Assembly: GCF_005490785.1 (NCBI RefSeq)
Contig: NZ_CP027295.1
Span: 1,798,001-1,862,000, forward strand
Source of the DNA: Brachybacterium sp. SGAir0954
GTDB taxonomy: Bacteria > Actinomycetota > Actinomycetes > Actinomycetales > Dermabacteraceae
Direction: 5' to 3'
DNA length: 64,000 nucleotides
The notes beneath the pieces are model-generated. The model saw only the letters and a program-made list of their open reading frames with translations, made no database searches and was not told where the DNA came from. The position numbers were made by a program, and so were the translations under genes. The first letter of the stretch is position 1. Every line of letters begins with the position of its first letter. Shown piece after piece: positions 6,035 through 13,940 of the stretch.

Positions 6035-9000
6035 ATGCGCATCAAGCTGACGCTGCGCCGTCCCGAGGACCGGCTCACCGACCTCGAGGTGACCGCCGAC
6101 GCGACCGCCTCGGTCGCCGACGTCGCCAACGCGCTGTACCTCGCCGATCCCCTCCGCGACGAGGTCGAGCCGCCCGATGGGCTGACCCTCCAGGTCCAGG
6201 ACCCGGGCGCGGGCCCCGGCGCGAGCGGCGTGCGCTCCCTGGACCGCGGCGCGGACCTCATCCAGGCGGGCCTGCGCTCCGGGAGCGTCGTCTCCATCGC
6301 CCGCTCCTCGGAGGACTTCGAGACCCGGGCGGAGTCACGCGGCGCGGCCGTCGCCCTGCTGCGGGTCCTCTCCGGGCCGGAGGCGGGACGCGAGTTCCCG
6401 CTGCCCAGCGGCTCGAGCGTCGTGGGACGCGAGGGCGACCTCGACATCCGCATCGCCGATCCGATGCTCTCCAAACGGCACGCGCGGATCAACGTCTCCG
6501 ACACGATCGAGGTCGTGGACCTGCACTCCTCCAACGGTGTGGTGATCGGCGGCGAGCAGGTCCAGCGCGCCGTCATCGGCCCCGCGGACACCGTCCTCAT
6601 CGGCGGGACGACCTTCTCCGTGATCACCCTGCACCGACTGGGCGGCGCCGCCCCGAGCAGCCCCGTCGTCGAGTTCAACCGCTCCCCGCGGGTGGTGCCG
6701 CGCTTCCCCTACCGCCCGCTCAAGGCGCCCACCCCGCCCAAGGAGCCCGCGCCGCAGTACTTCCCGATCTTCATGATGTTCGCGCCGGTGTTCATGGGCG
6801 CGTTCATGTTCTCCCTGACCCGCAGCCCCTTCTCGCTCATGTTCGTGGTGATGATGCCGCTCATGGCCACCGCGGGCTACCTCAACCGCAAGTGGCAGCA
6901 GAAGAAGCAGCTCGAGCGGCAGATCGAGAACTTCGAGGAGGGGCTCGCCTCGCTCAAGCGCCGCGTCACCGCCGCCCAGGACCTCGAGCGTGCGGTGCGG
7001 CTGGTGGAGACCCCCTCCGCCGCGGACACCGTCGACGCGGCGTTCCGCCTGGGCCGCCTGCTGTGGACCCACCGCACCGAGCACAACGCCTTCGGCACGG
7101 TGCGCCTGGGCCTCGGCGTCGCCGAGTCGCGGGTGGGCATCGAGATGCCGGGGGAGAACGACGCGATCCCGAAGTACTACGACATGCTCGACGACATGCA
7201 CGAGAAGTACCGCCTGATCGCGGGCGTGCCGATCGTCGGGGACCTCCGCTCCGCCGGGAGCATCGGCGTCGCCGGCGGCGGCCAGGAGGCGGACGGCGTG
7301 GCCCGCGGGCTCGTCACCCAGCTGTTCGCCCTGCACTCCCCGGCGGATCTCGCGATCGCCGCGATCACCTCGCGCACCAGCCGCGACCGCTGGCAGTGGT
7401 TGAAGTGGCTCCCGCACACCTCGAGCCCCCACTCCCCGCTGCCCGGCGACCACCTCGCGGACAGCCCCGGCCGCGGCACCGCCCTGCTCTCCCGCATCGA
7501 GGAGCTCATCGAGCAGCGGGGCCAGGGCGCCCCGGCCCAGCTGCGCACCCCGCTCACGCCGGACGTGACGAAGGAGCCGCGGATCCCGCCGGAGCCGGTC
7601 GCCCCGCTGCTGCTCGTGGTCATCGAGGACGACGCGCCCGTCGACCGCGCCCGCCTCGTGCGCCTCGCGGAGAAGGGGCCCGACGTCGGCGTGCACGTGC
7701 TGTGGTCCGCCGCGAACGTCGCCGCGCTACCCGCGGCGTGCCGCACCTACGTCTCGGTCGACGAGGCCGTGGAGGGCGCGAGCGCGGGCCACGTGCGGCT
7801 CGGGGAGCGGTACTACCCCGTGACCGTCGAGACCGTCGCGGTCGACGTCGCCGCCGGGGTGGCCCGCCACCTCTCGCCCGTGGTCGACGCGGGCGTGCCG
7901 GTGGACGACGACTCCGACCTCCCGCGCGCGATCTCCTACCTCAAGCTCGGCGGCATGGCGCTCGCCGAGGACCCCGGCCACATCATCGAGCGGTGGAAGG
8001 AGAACAACTCCCTCACCCCGCGGGACGGCTCCGAGCCGGTGCGCCGCAAGCACGACGCGAACCTGCGCGGGCTGATCGGGCACAACGGCCAGGACGCCTT
8101 CCACCTGGACCTGCGCACCAACGGCCCGCACGCCCTCGTGGGCGGCACCACCGGCGCCGGCAAGTCCGAGTTCCTGCAGGCGTGGGTGATGGGCATGGCC
8201 ACCGCCCACAGCCCGGACCGCGTGACCTTCCTCTTCGTGGACTACAAGGGCGGAGCGGCCTTCGCGGACTGCATCACGCTGCCCCATGCGGTGGGCCTGG
8301 TCACCGATCTCTCCCCGCACCTCGTGCGGCGCGCGCTCACCTCCCTGCGGGCCGAGCTGCACCATCGCGAGCACCTGCTGAACCGCAAGAAGGCGAAGGA
8401 CCTCGTCTCGCTCGAGCGCACCGGCGACCCCGAGACCCCGCCGAGCCTCATCATCATCGTCGACGAGTTCGCGGCGCTGGCCAAGGAGATCCCCGAGTTC
8501 GTGGACGGCGTGGTCGACGTCGCCGCGCGCGGCCGCTCCCTGGGGCTCCACCTGATCCTCGCCACCCAGCGGCCGGCCGGTGTCATCAAGGACAACCTGC
8601 GCGCGAACACGAACCTCCGGATCGCCCTGCGCATGGCCGACGAGGCGGATTCCCAGGACATCCTGGGCGACAAGATGGCCGCCCACTTCGATCCGGGGAT
8701 CCCGGGCCGCGCCGCCGCCAAGACCGGTCCGGGCCGCATCGCGACCTTCCAGACCGGCTACGCGGGAGGCTGGACGACGGAGGAGCCCGAGCGGGCCCGC
8801 ATCGACATCGTCGAGCGGGACTTCGGCACGGGGGAGGCCTGGGACATCCCGGCCCCGCCCGTGAAGGAGGTCAAGGACCCGGGTCCCAACGACATCAGCC
8901 GCATGGTGCACACGATCATCGGCGCCGCGGAGCAGGCCTGCGTTCCGGCCCCGCGCAAGCCGTGGCTCTCCGAGCTCGCGGACGCCTACGACCTCTCCCG

Positions 9001-10501
9001 CCTGCCCACCCGGCGCAGCGACGAGGAGCTGCTGCTGGGCGTCATGGACGTCCCTGAGCAGCAGGCGCAGCCCACGATCTCCTACTTCCCCGACCGTGAC
9101 GGCAACATGGCCATCTACGGCACGGGCGGCTCCGGCAAGTCCACGACCCTGCGCACCCTCGCGATCTCCGCCGCCTCGACGGTGCGCGGCGGTCCCGTGC
9201 ACGTGTACGGCCTGGACTTCGGCGCCTCGGGCCTGTCGATGCTCGAGGAGCTCCCGCACGTGGGCTCGATCGTCCCCGGGGACGACGAGGAGCGGGTCAT
9301 CCGCCTGCTGCGCACCCTGCGCGGGCTGGTCGACGAGCGCGCCCGCGACTTCGCGCGCTTCCGCGCCGGCTCGATCTCCGAGTACCGCGCACTCGCCGGG
9401 AAGCCGGAGGAGCCGCGCATCCTGCTGCTCGTGGACGGCATGGCCGCGTTCCGCGAGGCCTACGACTACTCGAACCTCACCAAATGGTTCACGACCTTCG
9501 TGCAGATCGCGACCGACGGGCGCCAGGTGGGCGTGCACGTGATCGTCACCGGCGACCGCCCCAACGCGATCCCCACCTCGCTGGGCTCCTCGATCCAGCG
9601 CCGCCTCATCCACCGCATGACCGGGGTGGACGACTATGCGGGCTTCGGCGAGCCGAAGGACGTGCTCGACGGCTCCTCGCCACCCGGCCGCGCGATCCTC
9701 GAGGGGCACGAGGTGCAGGTCGCCGTCCACGGCGGCGATGCGAACGTCGCGATCCAGTCCCGCGAGGTCACGAAGCTCGCGCGGGCCATGCGCCGGGCCG
9801 GCGTGCCGGAGGCCCCCGCCGTGGAGCGCCTGCCGGAGCGGGTCGAGCTGTCCTCGCTGCGTCCGGTCGTCGGCGGTCGCCCCGTGCTGGGTGTGGGCGA
9901 CGAGACCCTCGCCGAGGTCACCTTCGAGCCGCGCGGCGCGTTCATGGTCACGGGCCCGATGGGTTCGGGTCGCACCACCGCGATGCTCACGATCGCCACC
10001 GGCCTCAAGGCGCTCGAGCAGCCGATGCGGCTCGTGCGCTTCTCCGCACGACGGACTCCGCTCACGGGGCTCGACGTCTGGGACGTGGAGGCCTCGGACC
10101 CGGAGACGGTCAAGGAGCTCGCCGCGCAGCTGCGCGGCACCGTGGAGTCCGGATCCGTGGGGGAGGGGCGGCTGGCCCTCTTCATCGACGGCGTCACCGA
10201 CTTCACCGGGACGGGCGTCGAGAACGACCTCGACAAGCTGATCCGCGCCTCCACCCGCGAGGCCCAGTTCGTGGTGGGCGAGAACGAGTCCGCCTCGTGG
10301 TCGCAGGCCTACGTGCTCGCCCAGCCCTTCAAGTCCGGTCGCCGCGGCCTGCTGCTGCAGCCGGGGGAGATGGAGGGCGACTCGCTGCTGGGGACGAGCC
10401 TGGGCAGGATCCGGCGCGCGGACTTCCCGACGGGCCGAGGGTTCCTCGTCGCCGGCGGCCGTGCGACCAAGCTGCAGGTCGCCCAGCGCACGATCGACTG
10501 A
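6035..10501 (+). CDS. EssC/EccC-type FtsK/SpoIIIE ATPase of a type VII-like secretion system, with FHA domain
   Basis: 1488-residue membrane motor that should recognise and export WXG100 substrates. Order of parts: an N-terminal ubiquitin/FHA-like domain (1-95), a clear FHA domain (about 109-200; VGR, LSKRHARI, SSNG), two transmembrane helices (about 243-283), a linker, then three FtsK/SpoIIIE ATPase modules. P-loops lie at about 702 (GGTTGAGKSEF), 1028 (GTGGSGKSTTL) and 1306 (GPMGSGRTTAM). The first module has Walker B LIIIVDEF (about 806). In the second the Walker B is LLLVDGM and the third has Arg for the P-loop Lys, so modules 2 and 3 look regulatory. N-terminal FHA placement is the layout known from Firmicutes EssC rather than mycobacterial EccC. 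WXG100 genes follow directly. Confidence 0.93.
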   Translation: MRIKLTLRRPEDRLTDLEVTADATASVADVANALYLADPLRDEVEPPDGLTLQVQDPGAGPGASGVRSLDRGADLIQAGLRSGSVVSIARSSEDFETRAESRGAAVALLRVLSGPEAGREFPLPSGSSVVGREGDLDIRIADPMLSKRHARINVSDTIEVVDLHSSNGVVIGGEQVQRAVIGPADTVLIGGTTFSVITLHRLGGAAPSSPVVEFNRSPRVVPRFPYRPLKAPTPPKEPAPQYFPIFMMFAPVFMGAFMFSLTRSPFSLMFVVMMPLMATAGYLNRKWQQKKQLERQIENFEEGLASLKRRVTAAQDLERAVRLVETPSAADTVDAAFRLGRLLWTHRTEHNAFGTVRLGLGVAESRVGIEMPGENDAIPKYYDMLDDMHEKYRLIAGVPIVGDLRSAGSIGVAGGGQEADGVARGLVTQLFALHSPADLAIAAITSRTSRDRWQWLKWLPHTSSPHSPLPGDHLADSPGRGTALLSRIEELIEQRGQGAPAQLRTPLTPDVTKEPRIPPEPVAPLLLVVIEDDAPVDRARLVRLAEKGPDVGVHVLWSAANVAALPAACRTYVSVDEAVEGASAGHVRLGERYYPVTVETVAVDVAAGVARHLSPVVDAGVPVDDDSDLPRAISYLKLGGMALAEDPGHIIERWKENNSLTPRDGSEPVRRKHDANLRGLIGHNGQDAFHLDLRTNGPHALVGGTTGAGKSEFLQAWVMGMATAHSPDRVTFLFVDYKGGAAFADCITLPHAVGLVTDLSPHLVRRALTSLRAELHHREHLLNRKKAKDLVSLERTGDPETPPSLIIIVDEFAALAKEIPEFVDGVVDVAARGRSLGLHLILATQRPAGVIKDNLRANTNLRIALRMADEADSQDILGDKMAAHFDPGIPGRAAAKTGPGRIATFQTGYAGGWTTEEPERARIDIVERDFGTGEAWDIPAPPVKEVKDPGPNDISRMVHTIIGAAEQACVPAPRKPWLSELADAYDLSRLPTRRSDEELLLGVMDVPEQQAQPTISYFPDRDGNMAIYGTGGSGKSTTLRTLAISAASTVRGGPVHVYGLDFGASGLSMLEELPHVGSIVPGDDEERVIRLLRTLRGLVDERARDFARFRAGSISEYRALAGKPEEPRILLLVDGMAAFREAYDYSNLTKWFTTFVQIATDGRQVGVHVIVTGDRPNAIPTSLGSSIQRRLIHRMTGVDDYAGFGEPKDVLDGSSPPGRAILEGHEVQVAVHGGDANVAIQSREVTKLARAMRRAGVPEAPAVERLPERVELSSLRPVVGGRPVLGVGDETLAEVTFEPRGAFMVTGPMGSGRTTAMLTIATGLKALEQPMRLVRFSARRTPLTGLDVWDVEASDPETVKELAAQLRGTVESGSVGEGRLALFIDGVTDFTGTGVENDLDKLIRASTREAQFVVGENESASWSQAYVLAQPFKSGRRGLLLQPGEMEGDSLLGTSLGRIRRADFPTGRGFLVAGGRATKLQVAQRTID

Positions 10502-10694: not shown

Positions 10695-10961
10695 GTGAAC
10701 GCCACGCAGGGCATGAACGTGGAAGAGGTCCGCCGGATGGCGAACCAGCTGCGCGATGCGGCGGAGGAGATCACCCGCATCGAGCAGGAGCTGACCTCCG
10801 GGCTGGAGGAGGTCGACTGGACGGGTCCGGATGCGGACCGCTTCCGCGGCGAATGGTCCGGGGAGATGGTCCCCGCGCTGCAGCAGGTCAGGAAGGCCGT
10901 CGAGGAGCTGGGGCAGACGGCCGACTCCAACGCCGCCGAGCAGGAGGCCACCTCCTCCTGA
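10695..10961 (+). CDS. WXG100 family protein (unit 1)
   Basis: 88-residue probable type VII secretion substrate or chaperone partner. It has the family layout of two amphipathic helices joined by the turn motif WTG (in VDWTGPDADRF, about residue 42), and ends in an Asn/Ala/Glu-rich tail. I chose GTG 10695 because GGGGAGAGG lies just upstream and the first helix then starts normally; the frame is open further upstream but lacks WXG100-like sequence. It directly follows the ATPase gene with its own promoter and is closed by a strong terminator. Cysteines are absent, as usual. Confidence 0.88.
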   Translation: MNATQGMNVEEVRRMANQLRDAAEEITRIEQELTSGLEEVDWTGPDADRFRGEWSGEMVPALQQVRKAVEELGQTADSNAAEQEATSS

Positions 10962-11083: not shown

Positions 11084-11566
11084 ATGGTCAAGAGCATCTC
11101 GTACCCGAGCGCCGACTTCCCCGGGCCGCCGCGGATCAGCGCCGGCGTGCCCGAGGACTGGGAGGCTCTCACGGTCGCCGGTGTCCAGCTCGCCGTCGCC
11201 CAGCCGCGCATCGAGGGGCGCTTCCGCGCCAACGTGGTGGTCACCGTGCAGCGCTTCGGGCCCGGGTTCACGCTCGACCAGGCCGGTGAGTCGCTCACGC
11301 GCCGCAAGGCCGCCCTCCCCGAGCTCGAGGAGCTCGGCACGGGCCGGATCGAGGTGGGCGAGCGCGAGTGGATCGCGAGCGAATACGGCTACACCCAGCC
11401 CGGCCGGCCCACCGTGGTGCAGGCCGCCCGGTACACGGTGGTCCCGCGCGGGGAGAGCGCGACGGATGTCGTGGAGATCGTCGGCAGCTGCGGGGCGGAT
11501 GGCGCCGACGACGAGATCGAGATCGTGCGCGGCATCCAGGACTCACTGCGCATCGAGACCGACTGA
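11084..11566 (+). CDS. LpqN/LpqT-like (DUF1795-type) protein of unknown function
   Basis: 160 residues, alpha/beta pattern beginning YPSADFPGPPRISAGVPEDWEAL and containing NVVVTVQRF and a C-terminal EIEIVRGIQDSLRI. This resembles the LpqN/LpqT and DUF1795 folds found in lipoproteins and type VII-linked proteins. No signal peptide, lipobox or transmembrane segment is present, so this copy should be cytosolic. ATG 11084 has GGAG upstream and is preferred over the in-frame TTG at 11045. Location between WXG100 genes suggests a role in the secretion locus, perhaps as chaperone or adaptor (inference). Confidence 0.65.
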   Translation: MVKSISYPSADFPGPPRISAGVPEDWEALTVAGVQLAVAQPRIEGRFRANVVVTVQRFGPGFTLDQAGESLTRRKAALPELEELGTGRIEVGEREWIASEYGYTQPGRPTVVQAARYTVVPRGESATDVVEIVGSCGADGADDEIEIVRGIQDSLRIETD

Positions 11567-11615: not shown

Positions 11616-11660
11616 GGGGAGTTCTCCCCATCGACCCGCCGCCGGTCCCCGACATAGCGT
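11616..11660 (+). promoter_or_regulatory. promoter of WXG100 unit 2: GGGGA-N4-TCCCC palindrome plus -10 box
   Basis: GGGGA (11616-11620), spacer GTTC, TCCCC (11625-11629) and AT, followed 24 bases after the AT by TAGCGT (11655-11660). It matches the design at 10553 and 12610. One outer arm base is lost here (C instead of T before GGGGA). A 9-C run at 11571-11579 lies between it and the preceding gene. Confidence 0.7.
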
Positions 11661-11705: not shown

Positions 11706-11756
11706 GGAGGTCACCCGGGGAGAGTCCAGGGAACACCGGATGAGGGGATGAGGACC

Positions 11757-12017
11757 ATGAAGAAGGGTATGAACCCGGAGGCTGTCGATCAGATGGCCAC
11801 GCAGATCACCGATGCGGCTGATCAGGCGAATGAGGCGTACCAGCGGGTGCTGGCGCGTGTGCAGGAGTTCGACTGGACCGGTGAGGATCGTGACCGGTAC
11901 GTGTCGGAGTTCGAGTCGACGGTGGGTCAGGCGGTGCAGCAGCTGGTGCAGCAGGCGCAGGATCTGTCGGAGCGGGCGTCGAAGAATGCTTCCGAGCAGC
12001 GGGATGCGTCCGCCTGA
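11757..12017 (+). CDS. WXG100 family protein A, copy 1
   Basis: 86 residues with two predicted helices and the turn motif FDWTGEDRDRY (WTG at about 40-42). The start at ATG 11757 is chosen to match the copy at 12757; an in-frame ATG at 11748 exists only here. A GAGGGGATGAGG ribosome site precedes it. It is the first gene of a bicistron; the partner follows after 64 bases, as in EsxA/EsxB-type heterodimers. Gln/Ala-rich helices and a Ser/Glu/Gln tail fit a secreted four-helix-bundle half. The protein is identical to the product of 12757-13017. Confidence 0.9.
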   Translation: MKKGMNPEAVDQMATQITDAADQANEAYQRVLARVQEFDWTGEDRDRYVSEFESTVGQAVQQLVQQAQDLSERASKNASEQRDASA

Positions 12018-12081
12018 TCGGCGGGTGCGTCAGCTTCTCGTAGTCGTCGAGATCAGTTTTTTCTAGAGCGAGGGGATTGTC

Positions 12082-12351
12082 ATGGCTTTCAAGGGAATGA
12101 ACCCGGAGGAGGGTCGCGAGGTCGCGACCGCGATCAATGAGGCGGGCAGCCAGATCCTGGATGCGATCGATGCGGTGACCGGTGTGGTCAACGGTGTGGA
12201 GTGGGTCGGTCCGGATTACGACACGTATGTGGATGACTGGAACGGTTTTGTCTCGGGTCCGGTGAACAGCGTGGTCGAGGCGTGCAAGGCGAAGTCGGAT
12301 GAGCTGAACCAGCATGCCGAGGAGCAGGACACGACCTCGAACAGCAACTGA
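12082..12351 (+). CDS. WXG100 family protein B, copy 1
   Basis: 89 residues; turn motif VEWVGPDYDTYV (WVG at about 40-42). A single Cys at about residue 68 in the second helix (VEACKAKSDEL) is unusual for this family and could allow a disulfide-linked dimer after export (inference). The tail is Asn/Ser-rich. AGCGAGGGG precedes the ATG. It is probably the heterodimer partner of the gene just upstream and is identical to the product of 13082-13351. Confidence 0.9.
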   Translation: MAFKGMNPEEGREVATAINEAGSQILDAIDAVTGVVNGVEWVGPDYDTYVDDWNGFVSGPVNSVVEACKAKSDELNQHAEEQDTTSNSN

Positions 12352-12385
12352 GTCCGTCCGGTCGCGTAGTCGTCCGCGCCGCCGC

Positions 12386-12428
12386 AGGACCCCGTCCCGT
12401 CCCCCGCAGGGGAGCGGTGCGGGGTCCT
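12386..12428 (+). terminator. terminator after WXG100 unit 2
   Basis: A 9-bp outer stem (12386-12394 with 12420-12428) encloses a second stem (TCCCC/GGGGA) and is followed by TC. It lies 35 bases after the stop of protein B. The rest of the 405-base gap to the next gene holds only the unit-3 promoter and leader; no gene is seen. Confidence 0.65.
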
Positions 12429-12609
12429 TCGCCGTCCGCCGCCGACCCCGGCGGGGAGCTGGGCGAGCGGGGGTGCGGGCCGACGGCGAGCTGGGCGGCC
12501 GGGACGAGCGGCCCGAGCCGGCCGTCATCCACAACGGCTCCGTGCGGGCCGAGAGCGCGATCCCGCCTCTGACCTGTGGTGATATTCAGCAGGCGGTATG
12601 GGGAGGGGG

Positions 12610-12655
12610 ATGGGGAGTTGTCCCCATCGTCAGGTCGTGCAGGGCCGCCTAGTGT
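12610..12655 (+). promoter_or_regulatory. promoter of WXG100 unit 3: ATGGGGA-N4-TCCCCAT palindrome plus -10 box
   Basis: A perfect inverted repeat (12610-12616 and 12621-12627, spacer GTTG) is followed 23 bases later by TAGTGT (12650-12655). It is the same design as at 10553 and 11616. Relative to unit 2 this part lies at an offset of about 996 rather than 1,000, so the upstream regions have gained or lost bases while the genes have not. Confidence 0.72.
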
Positions 12656-12688
12656 GGAGTCATCACCTGGAGGTCAGGGATCGAGGAG

Positions 12689-12705
12689 GCGGCCATGGCG
12701 GCCGC
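12689..12705 (+). promoter_or_regulatory. leader hairpin of WXG100 unit 3
   Basis: GCGGCC (12689-12694), loop ATGGC, GGCCGC (12700-12705). It is the counterpart of 11689-11705: the stem is kept and the loop differs. It lies in the leader between the -10 box and the ATG at 12757. Confidence 0.5.
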
Positions 12706-12756
12706 GGAGATCCGGGCCATGGGTGGACCAGGGAAGACGCGACGAGGAGGAACGCC

Positions 12757-13017
12757 ATGAAGAAGGGTATGAACCCGGAGGCTGTCGATCAGATGGCCAC
12801 GCAGATCACCGATGCGGCTGATCAGGCGAATGAGGCGTACCAGCGGGTGCTGGCGCGTGTGCAGGAGTTCGACTGGACCGGTGAGGATCGTGACCGGTAC
12901 GTGTCGGAGTTCGAGTCGACGGTGGGTCAGGCGGTGCAGCAGCTGGTGCAGCAGGCGCAGGATCTGTCGGAGCGGGCGTCGAAGAATGCTTCCGAGCAGC
13001 GGGATGCGTCCGCCTGA
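12757..13017 (+). CDS. WXG100 family protein A, copy 2
   Basis: Identical 86-residue protein to 11757-12017, with the same DNA. The ribosome site differs (GAGGAGG at 12744-12750 rather than GAGGGGATGAGG), and the promoter and leader are diverged homologues of those of copy 1. Two identical genes under similar but not equal leaders would raise dosage or allow separate tuning. Confidence 0.9.
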   Translation: MKKGMNPEAVDQMATQITDAADQANEAYQRVLARVQEFDWTGEDRDRYVSEFESTVGQAVQQLVQQAQDLSERASKNASEQRDASA

Positions 13018-13081
13018 TCGGCGGGTGCGTCAGCTTCTCGTAGTCGTCGAGATCAGTTTTTTCTAGAGCGAGGGGATTGTC

Positions 13082-13351
13082 ATGGCTTTCAAGGGAATGA
13101 ACCCGGAGGAGGGTCGCGAGGTCGCGACCGCGATCAATGAGGCGGGCAGCCAGATCCTGGATGCGATCGATGCGGTGACCGGTGTGGTCAACGGTGTGGA
13201 GTGGGTCGGTCCGGATTACGACACGTATGTGGATGACTGGAACGGTTTTGTCTCGGGTCCGGTGAACAGCGTGGTCGAGGCGTGCAAGGCGAAGTCGGAT
13301 GAGCTGAACCAGCATGCCGAGGAGCAGGACACGACCTCGAACAGCAACTGA
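13082..13351 (+). CDS. WXG100 family protein B, copy 2
   Basis: Identical 89-residue protein and DNA to 12082-12351, including the single Cys and the T-rich spacer before it (GTTTTTTCT near 13054-13062). It is the last gene of the secretion locus in this window and is followed by a strong terminator facing the convergent yajQ gene. Confidence 0.9.
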   Translation: MAFKGMNPEEGREVATAINEAGSQILDAIDAVTGVVNGVEWVGPDYDTYVDDWNGFVSGPVNSVVEACKAKSDELNQHAEEQDTTSNSN

Positions 13352-13380
13352 GGTCCCTCCCGGCCCCGCCGGGAGAACGC

Positions 13381-13451: not shown

Positions 13452-13940
13452 TCAGCGGTAGTTGATGAACTGCAGCGCGACCTCGAGGTCCTTGCCCTTG
13501 AGCAGGGCGATGACGGCCTGGAGGTCGTCGCGGCTCTTGGAGGAGACCCGCAGCTCGTCGCCCTGGATCTGGGCCTTCACGCCCTTGGGGCCCTCGTCGC
13601 GGATGATCTTGGAGATCTTCTTGGCGTCCTCGGTGCTGATGCCCTCCTTGAGGGCGGCCGCGAGGCGCACCTCCTTGCCGGACTGCTTGGGCTCGCCCAC
13701 CTCGATGGCCTTGAGGGAGATGCCGCGGCGCAGGAGCTTGGTCTGCAGGACGTCGAGGACGGCCAGCACGCGCTCCTCGGCGTTCGCGGTCATGACGATC
13801 TCGTCCCCGCTGAGGGTGAGCGAGGCGCCGGTGCCGCGGAAGTCGTAGCGCTGGCCCACTTCCTTCACCGCCTGGTTCACGGCGTTGTCGACCTCCTGGC
13901 GGTCGAGCTGGCTGACGATGTCGAACGATGAATCGGCCAT
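13452..13940 (-). CDS. yajQ: YajQ family (DUF520) nucleotide-binding protein
   Basis: 162 residues, full-length for the family. It starts [20 protein letters not shown] and contains [14 protein letters not shown] and [19 protein letters not shown], all typical of YajQ. In some proteobacteria YajQ binds cyclic di-GMP and alters transcription; in Actinobacteria the ligand is not established. The minus-strand ATG is at 13940 with GGAAGG upstream. It is a single-gene unit, converging with the WXG100 locus. Confidence 0.93.

What the first reader, a model, noticed from the sequence alone, without database searches (positions are those of the whole stretch)
11755..13352. Two WXG100 bicistrons identical over 598 bp at an offset of exactly 1,000 bp, with identity ending at the coding boundaries
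I compared the two tracts block by block: every base of 11755-12352 equals 12755-13352, including the 64-base spacer and all silent sites. Identity begins 2 bases before the first ATG and ends 1 base after the last stop, while the promoters and leaders are clearly related but diverged. A simple recent duplication should carry its flanks along. The pattern suggests repeated gene conversion confined to the genes, or strong selection for two identical substrate pairs. An assembly artefact is possible but less likely because the flanks differ.
Basis: partly seen in the sequence, partly recalled or inferred. Interest (0 to 1): 0.85.

Follow-up and report, generated by a model that had tools for sequence, protein, structure and literature searches.

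The report
Twin secretion genes kept identical
Brachybacterium species carry an old tandem pair of small secretion-system genes that keep overwriting each other, so the two copies stay identical within a species while changing fast between species, and copies kept identical this way also have an unusual DNA letter make-up that is not yet explained.

Summary
In detail: 598 of 598 bases agree at an offset of 1,000, from 2 bases before the first ATG to 1 base after the last TGA. The unit is a pair of small WXG100/Esx-like genes of a type VII secretion locus in Brachybacterium. Of 36 genus genomes read (window plus 35 relatives), 15 have two or more assembled copies; in 12 of these, two copies differ by 0-2 substitutions, although relatives' units are only 67-76% like the window's. 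Promoters tell the opposite story: in five species copy-1 promoters group together and copy-2 promoters group together, while the genes group by genome. So the duplication is old and recombination keeps the copies alike. The stop at the coding edges is local: in 10 of the 12 genomes exact identity runs 23-151 bp upstream. Such concerted evolution is known (tuf, tubercle esx genes). The new part: homogenised copies are strongly G+T-rich on the coding strand (four-fold sites 0.62-0.81; comparison copies of other lineages 0.24-0.43), even within one genome. GC-biased conversion does not predict this; recombination bias and translation-linked selection remain open.

The parts
11757..12017 (+). gene A, copy 1: EsxA-like WXG100 protein, 86 aa
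   Evidence: ORF with ATG and TGA; weak WXG100 matches below curated cut-offs (PF06013 25.3 of 27.3 bits; TIGR03930 30.8 of 44.85 bits)
12018..12081 (+). non-coding spacer of copy 1, 64 nt, identical in both copies
12082..12351 (+). gene B, copy 1: EsxB-like WXG100 protein, 89 aa
   Evidence: no Pfam or NCBIfam match as a single sequence; profile finds EsxA structures at E 3.1e-4; modelled two-helix hairpin, Foldseek prob 1.00 to EsxB/EsxA but no E under 0.001
12757..13017 (+). gene A, copy 2
   Evidence: identical to copy 1
13018..13081 (+). spacer of copy 2
   Evidence: identical to copy 1
13082..13351 (+). gene B, copy 2
   Evidence: identical to copy 1
11616..11633 (+). palindromic promoter box, copy 1 (GGGGAGTTCTCCCCATCG)
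   Evidence: conserved in most aligned leaders; exact site; letters checked; regulator role inferred
12612..12629 (+). palindromic promoter box, copy 2 (GGGGAGTTGTCCCCATCG)
11655..11660 (+). -10-like motif of copy 1 (inferred by alignment)
   Evidence: no transcript data
12650..12655 (+). -10-like motif of copy 2 (inferred by alignment)
   Evidence: no transcript data
6035..10501 (+). EssC/EccC-type FHA-FtsK ATPase of the T7SS locus, 1488 aa
   Evidence: FHA, FtsK_SpoIIIE; EssC 532.8 bits, EccCa 348, EccCb 326, all below their cut-offs
10695..10961 (+). single WXG100 gene, conserved, not duplicated here
   Evidence: PF06013 29.3 bits over the 27.3 cut-off
11084..11566 (+). 160-aa protein without Pfam match, upstream neighbour
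   Evidence: in frame; present in relatives
13452..13940 (-). YajQ (DUF520), downstream neighbour
   Evidence: PF04461 207.9 bits

Best explanation
An EsxA/EsxB-like gene pair of a type VII secretion locus was duplicated in tandem in an ancestor of most Brachybacterium species. Each copy kept its own box-containing promoter. Since then homologous recombination between the copies (gene conversion, or unequal exchange with the same outcome) has repeatedly overwritten one copy with the other, so the unit evolves in concert although its proteins change fast between species. In this genome the leaders have diverged so far that identity stops at the coding edges; in most homogenised relatives it runs on into leader and promoter. 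Shown: identity at silent and non-coding sites, position-specific promoters, recurrence across species, escape in some lineages. Inferred: that the recombination is RecA-dependent, that two identical copies are kept for dosage and interchangeable A-B partners, and that the box binds a T7SS regulator.
For: 12 of 15 multi-copy genomes hold two copies with 0-2 substitutions, 5 in all over about 7.1 kb, plus one indel in G003. Within-genome dS is 0-0.017; median silent difference between the homogenised species (G017 left out) is 0.44. Spacers are identical within all 12. In G000, G009, G020, G023 and G028, promoters split into copy-1 and copy-2 groups (support 96/95) and pairing G009's own two promoters is rejected (p-AU 8.8e-6), while coding regions pair by genome and a copy-1 group is rejected (p-AU 9e-51). 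Between G009 and G023, 66 of 67 differences are carried by both copies of both species; G009-G020 77 of 77; G020-G023 82 of 82; G000-G002 137 of 138; G003-G037 95 of 103. Homogenised genomes are scattered over the EccC tree.
Against: Three of 15 multi-copy genomes (G006 74%, G035 70%, G010 94% with a decayed copy) and the third copy of G017 (70%) are not homogenised. The promoter trees rest on 54 columns. Only one genome per species was available, so within-species mosaics were not tested, and conversion cannot be told from unequal exchange. 20 genomes show one assembled copy, some perhaps collapsed in assembly (shown for G024).
Confidence: 0.93

Rival explanations
1. Independent recent tandem duplication in each lineage (birth and death) rather than homogenisation of an old pair.
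For: 20 of 35 genomes with a parsed pair have one assembled copy and one has three, so copy number does change; tandem position makes duplication easy.
Against: Promoters outside the tract are orthologous by position between species, which a fresh duplication with its flank would not give.
Confidence: 0.04
2. Assembly or polishing artefact: the copies differ in truth and were made alike by short reads.
For: The identical tract is longer than a short read; G024 shows that short-read assembly stumbles here. Sequencing methods of the genomes were not shown to me.
Against: Twelve assemblies agree, among them single-contig ones (G000, G002, G008, G017, G023, G037); single differences are retained in four; species-specific changes sit in both copies.
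Confidence: 0.02
3. For the composition only: the G+T-rich silent sites come from translation- or expression-linked selection on a highly made protein pair, and merely go along with keeping two identical copies.
For: The rise of T over C differs by codon box, low where the second base is T (Val 0.14, Leu 0.09, Ile 0.17, Phe 0.07) and high for Gly 0.73, Arg 0.69, Ala 0.61, Asp 0.56. GGAGG and GGTGG are rarer than in synonymous shuffles (z -4.8, -4.4). In G017 silent sites are enriched but the spacer (0.43) is not.
Against: The non-coding spacer is enriched in the other 11 homogenised genomes (0.61-0.82). A ribosomal-protein region of this genome lacks the bias (third-position G+T 0.43), as do two single-copy WXG genes downstream of the same box. 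mRNA of homogenised copies is not less structured (-0.400 against -0.388 kcal/mol per nt, 10 copies each). Leaders outside the tract (G000, G017) are presumably transcribed but have G+T 0.51, against 0.68 inside it.
Confidence: 0.45

Closest known systems
tufA/tufB of Salmonella (EF-Tu genes; PMC5485169, abstract and passages seen)
   Same: Two copies in one chromosome kept alike by gene conversion, with identity ending at the coding boundaries, as in this window.
   Different: There a dispersed pair of a slow-evolving housekeeping gene (recalled); here a tandem bicistron whose proteins evolve fast between species (dN/dS 0.16-0.82 for A and B, 0.05-0.16 for EccC).
esx paralogues of Mycobacterium tuberculosis (PMC13061034 and PMC12046097, passages seen; Uplekar 2011 known only through its citation there)
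   Same: WXG100 gene pairs of a type VII system that undergo gene conversion.
   Different: There conversion among dispersed paralogues is reported mainly as a source of diversity within one species, and paralogous regions are depleted in C>T and enriched in T>C changes; here a tandem pair is homogenised across a genus and shifts from C towards T and G.
Long-lasting concerted evolution in prokaryotes: mtrA pairs and 26 recurrent genes (PMC4632066, abstract; PMC6053082, abstract and passages)
   Same: Paralogues more alike within than between species over long times.
   Different: The terms ESAT-6, type VII and WXG100 do not occur in the main text of PMC6053082; supplements were not searched.
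Firmicute-type T7SS (EsxA/EsxB with EssC)
   Same: Helical-hairpin WXG proteins; nearest solved folds to B are EsxB and EsxA; the ATPase scores best to EssC.
   Different: Curated cut-offs are missed by A and by the ATPase; other T7SSb membrane parts were not looked for.

Membership tests
Concerted evolution by gene conversion | Paralogues more alike within genomes than orthologues between species | tested here: met
   12 of 15 multi-copy genomes, 0-2 substitutions within, best between-species identity listed 88%
Concerted evolution by gene conversion | Duplication older than the species split, shown by flanks | tested here: met
   Position-specific promoter groups, five species
Concerted evolution by gene conversion | Observed non-reciprocal transfer, RecA dependence | not testable with these tools
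   Needs strains and experiments; conversion not separable from unequal exchange here
WXG100 / Esx proteins | About 100 residues, WXG between two helices, hairpin fold | tested here: met
   WTG in A, WVG in B in all rows aligned except WLG, WIG or WKG variants in B; hairpin model of B; A not modelled
WXG100 / Esx proteins | Score over the curated family cut-off | tested here: not met
   A 25.3 of 27.3 bits, B no match; so Esx-like rather than a certified member by that model
T7SSb (EssC type) | EssC over curated cut-off | tested here: not met
   532.8 of 778.4 bits; EccC models also missed
T7SSb (EssC type) | EsaA, EssA, EssB, EsaB present | not tested
   no search made
GC-biased gene conversion (PMC4450053, abstract seen) | Recombining genes richer in G+C | tested here: not met
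   Copy 1 of the 12 homogenised pairs has GC3 0.06-0.22 below EccC of the same genome

The most novel reading that the evidence does not exclude
Recombination between the copies itself carries a strand-specific bias: alleles with G or T on the coding strand win, or G+T-rich strands recombine better (RecA is reported to leave TGG repeats most slowly). Homogenised DNA then drifts to G+T across silent sites, spacer, leader and, in one clade, untranscribed promoter, and drifts back when a copy is lost. This would be a keto-biased gene conversion in bacteria, distinct from GC-biased conversion.
Probability: 0.3. Interest if true: 0.82.

Novelty: new variant of a known kind. Interest (0 to 1): 0.6.

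Why it matters
It offers a natural series for bacterial gene conversion: homogenised, diverged, decaying and single-copy states of one locus in related species, with position-specific promoters as an internal record. It shows that fast-evolving T7SS partner proteins can be kept identical in two copies. The link between homogenisation and a coding-strand G+T bias, seen even between copies of one genome (G017), runs against what GC-biased gene conversion predicts for recombining bacterial genes and makes the direction of conversion bias testable at a small locus.

Tried and rejected
Chi-like or TGG-motif reading: GGTGG and GTGG are rarer than in synonymous shuffles of the homogenised copies, so there is no motif enrichment. 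Selection for unstructured mRNA: folding energy is not weaker (10 homogenised and 10 other copies). General high-expression codon usage: a ribosomal-protein region of the same genome lacks the bias (its gene set was picked mechanically and includes doubtful ORFs). Regulon-wide codon usage: two single-copy WXG genes downstream of the same box lack it. A plain AT-mutation reading of low GC3 was dropped because A falls while T and G rise. The independent-pairs test of homogenisation against high G+T went the right way in every pair that differed (mean 3.9 to 0, 2.1 not differing) but is too small to be significant (p 0.0625-0.25); the PGLS p values in the same call (about 1e-9, n = 30, copy 1 only, midpoint root) should be read with that. 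The promoter-interior comparison is close to one event, since the six genomes whose tract includes that stretch lie in one 12-genome group; both G020 copies failed the pattern and were left out.

Errors of mine: one search was one base out of frame; the 160-aa neighbour was searched out of frame and compared out of frame (that column is void; one search repeats the Pfam search in frame, another the composition). G003 copy 2 carries an indel in gene B, so its gene-B end, its downstream extension and the register of the G003-G037 count are affected. Rows dropped: G029 (only gene A on a contig end), G030 and G033 (no match). G007 was left out of the EccC tree for 48% identity and is classed as basal for that reason; G016, G024 and G031 had no EccC on the fetched stretch. 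In one search the intact G010 copy, G016, G024 and G031 stand apart from the four classes. G015 and G019 are classed with G006, G035 and the third G017 copy because they lie outside the 18-genome clade; the six 'derived singles' lie inside it.

Full report
What is there. The two 598-base tracts are identical at every position. Each holds gene A (86 aa), a 64-nt spacer and gene B (89 aa). A matches the WXG100 family below the curated cut-offs; B matches no model as a single sequence, but its profile finds EsxA structures (E 3.1e-4) and its model is a two-helix hairpin closest to EsxB and EsxA (probability 1.00, though no E under 0.001). Upstream lie a PP2C phosphatase, an FHA protein, a protein kinase, a 236-aa protein without Pfam match, an EssC/EccC-type ATPase, a single WXG100 gene and a 160-aa protein without Pfam match; downstream lie YajQ and three tRNA genes. 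The ATPase scores higher to Firmicute EssC than to EccC, but all three models stay under their cut-offs.

Relatives. With the 598-base tract as query, 36 of 38 genus genomes (own included) had a match. I read the locus in 35 relatives and the window. A complete A-B pair was parsed in 35 of 36; 15 genomes have two or more (G017 three) and 20 have one assembled copy. In 12 of the 15, two copies differ by 0-2 substitutions: G000 0, G002 1, G003 0 plus an indel in copy 2, G004 0, G008 1, G009 2, G014 0, G017 0, G020 0, G023 0, G028 1, G037 0. In the other three the copies are 74% (G006), 70% (G035) and 94% (G010, copy 1 decayed) alike; the third copy of G017 is 70% like its two identical ones. The units of the 11 homogenised relatives are 67-76% like the window's; the closest two species among those compared are 88% alike. 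G024 counts as single, but two of its contigs end in the same 127 bases at the promoter, so it is probably an unresolved pair.

Old duplication, concerted copies. A palindromic box and a -10-like motif stand in most aligned leaders; G001, G007 and G036 lack the box, and G010 copy 1 and G021 were left out of that alignment. In G000, G009, G020, G023 and G028 the 54-column promoter stretch splits into a copy-1 and a copy-2 group (support 96/95); pairing G009's own two promoters is rejected (p-AU 8.8e-6). The coding-plus-spacer tree does the opposite: copies pair by genome and a copy-1 group is rejected (p-AU 9e-51). Between G009 and G023, 66 of 67 differences are carried by both copies in both species; G009-G020 77 of 77; G020-G023 82 of 82; G000-G002 137 of 138; G003-G037 95 of 103, where the indel of G003 copy 2 disturbs the register of my count. 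Segment comparisons agree for the wider flank: upstream stretches of copy 2, where they match anything, match copy-2 stretches only. Nearer the gene, in the -160 to 0 stretch, most genomes' two leaders are closest to each other, because the tract covers them there; G009 and G023 are the exception, closest by position. Homogenised genomes are scattered over the EccC tree; the base of the 24-genome clade that holds G000 is unresolved.

Where identity stops. Exact identity upstream of the ATG is 2 bp in G000, 8 in G017, 23 in G003 (then 99% over the next 100), 30 in G023, 54 in G020, and 107-151 in G009, G028, G002, G008, G037, G014 and G004. Downstream it is 1 bp in G000 and 4-110 in the ten others; the G003 value is not usable. 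So the coincidence with both coding edges is a property of this genome. It resembles the Salmonella tuf pair, where identity also ends at the coding boundaries (PMC5485169, passage).

Speed of evolution. Over 14 species pairs A and B have dN/dS of 0.16-0.82 and EccC 0.05-0.16 (Nei-Gojobori, short genes, so rough). The pair evolves fast between species yet is identical within genomes. I infer that conversion lets a change spread to both copies and keeps partners interchangeable; no experiment here supports this.

Base composition. Copy 1 of the 12 homogenised pairs has GC3 0.06-0.22 below EccC of the same genome; copies that are not homogenised and have a measured EccC lie between +0.075 and -0.051, except G027 (-0.108) and G010 (-0.094, -0.104). 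The change is strand-specific: pooled third positions go from A 0.015, C 0.473, G 0.428, T 0.084 (13 other copies) to A 0.003, C 0.281, G 0.510, T 0.206 (12 homogenised). At four-fold sites G+T is 0.62-0.81 in the 12 homogenised genomes, 0.24-0.43 in 7 non-homogenised copies of the 24-genome clade outside the 18-genome clade, 0.25-0.41 in 9 basal single-copy genomes, and 0.45-0.63 in 6 single-copy genomes inside the 18-genome clade. Of four set apart, G024 has 0.81, G031 0.61, the intact G010 copy 0.56 and G016 0.23. Inside G017 the identical pair has 70 of 96 and the third copy 22 of 85 (Fisher p 2e-10). EccC, YajQ, the 160-aa gene, the single WXG100 gene and the flank at -400 to -170 show no such shift between classes. 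Among 359 ORFs from about 0.46 Mb of this genome, A and B included, only A and B combine four-fold G+T of at least 0.71 with T of at least 0.17. PGLS on the EccC tree gives a slope of 0.20-0.24 (p about 1e-9, n = 30); the independent-pairs test has too few pairs to be significant (p 0.0625-0.25).

Is the bias tied to recombination? For: the spacer is enriched in 11 of 12; leaders inside the tract have G+T 0.68 (8 genomes), leaders outside it 0.51 (G000 and G017, four leaders), comparison leaders 0.46 (15 copies); the stretch between box and -10 has 0.84 in 12 copies whose tract includes it and 0.47 in 10 whose tract does not, though this is near to one clade. Against: the G017 spacer is not enriched (0.43); G023's leader is rich (0.69-0.71) although exact identity stops at 30 bp, and six single-copy genomes have rich leaders too (0.64); the size of the shift depends on codon box, low after T; Chi-like words are avoided. 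RecA is reported to dissociate most slowly from TGG repeats, without a nucleation preference (PMC3763553, abstract and passages). GC-biased conversion predicts higher GC in recombining genes (PMC4450053, abstract). I leave recombination bias and translation-linked selection as open rivals.

Known or not. Gene conversion among esx genes is in print for M. tuberculosis and long-lasting concerted evolution in prokaryotes for other genes. A search for Brachybacterium with type VII secretion gave one paper, on soil metagenomes (listing only). Searches combining gene conversion with strand or G+T bias listed nothing that looked like the same finding (listings only). Most subscription papers are not in the library, so absence from print is not shown.

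Noticed in passing
window 11616-11633 and 12612-12629; G000:C1 900745, 1284148, 3081303: The box GGGGASTWNTCCCCATSG has 5 exact sites in this genome and none for the reversed pattern in any of 38 genus genomes. Four of the 5 lie upstream of WXG genes: the two bicistrons, a 311-aa WXG protein (L117 2840-3775) and an operon with a WXG protein (L119 from 3402); no WXG ORF was seen at the fifth. A candidate T7SS regulon box.
   Followed up: partly
window 10695-10961, 11757-12017, 12082-12351: The three WXG proteins of the locus end in a shared pattern E-Q-x-x-x-S (EQEATS, EQRDAS, EQDTTS), possibly an export or partner signal.
   Followed up: no
L051 (G003) and L052 (G010): One copy of the pair is broken in two relatives: gene B of copy 2 in G003 carries a frameshift, and copy 1 of G010 has decayed, with gene A shortened. 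Described only.
   Followed up: no
L048 (G017) 6933-9471 on the reverse strand: Triple array: two identical copies behind a copy-1-type and a copy-2-type promoter, and a third, diverged copy behind a copy-2-type promoter.
   Followed up: partly
genus genomes: WXG-like domains of the gene-B profile also sit in long open frames elsewhere in many Brachybacterium genomes, which look like WXG-headed secreted effectors.
   Followed up: no
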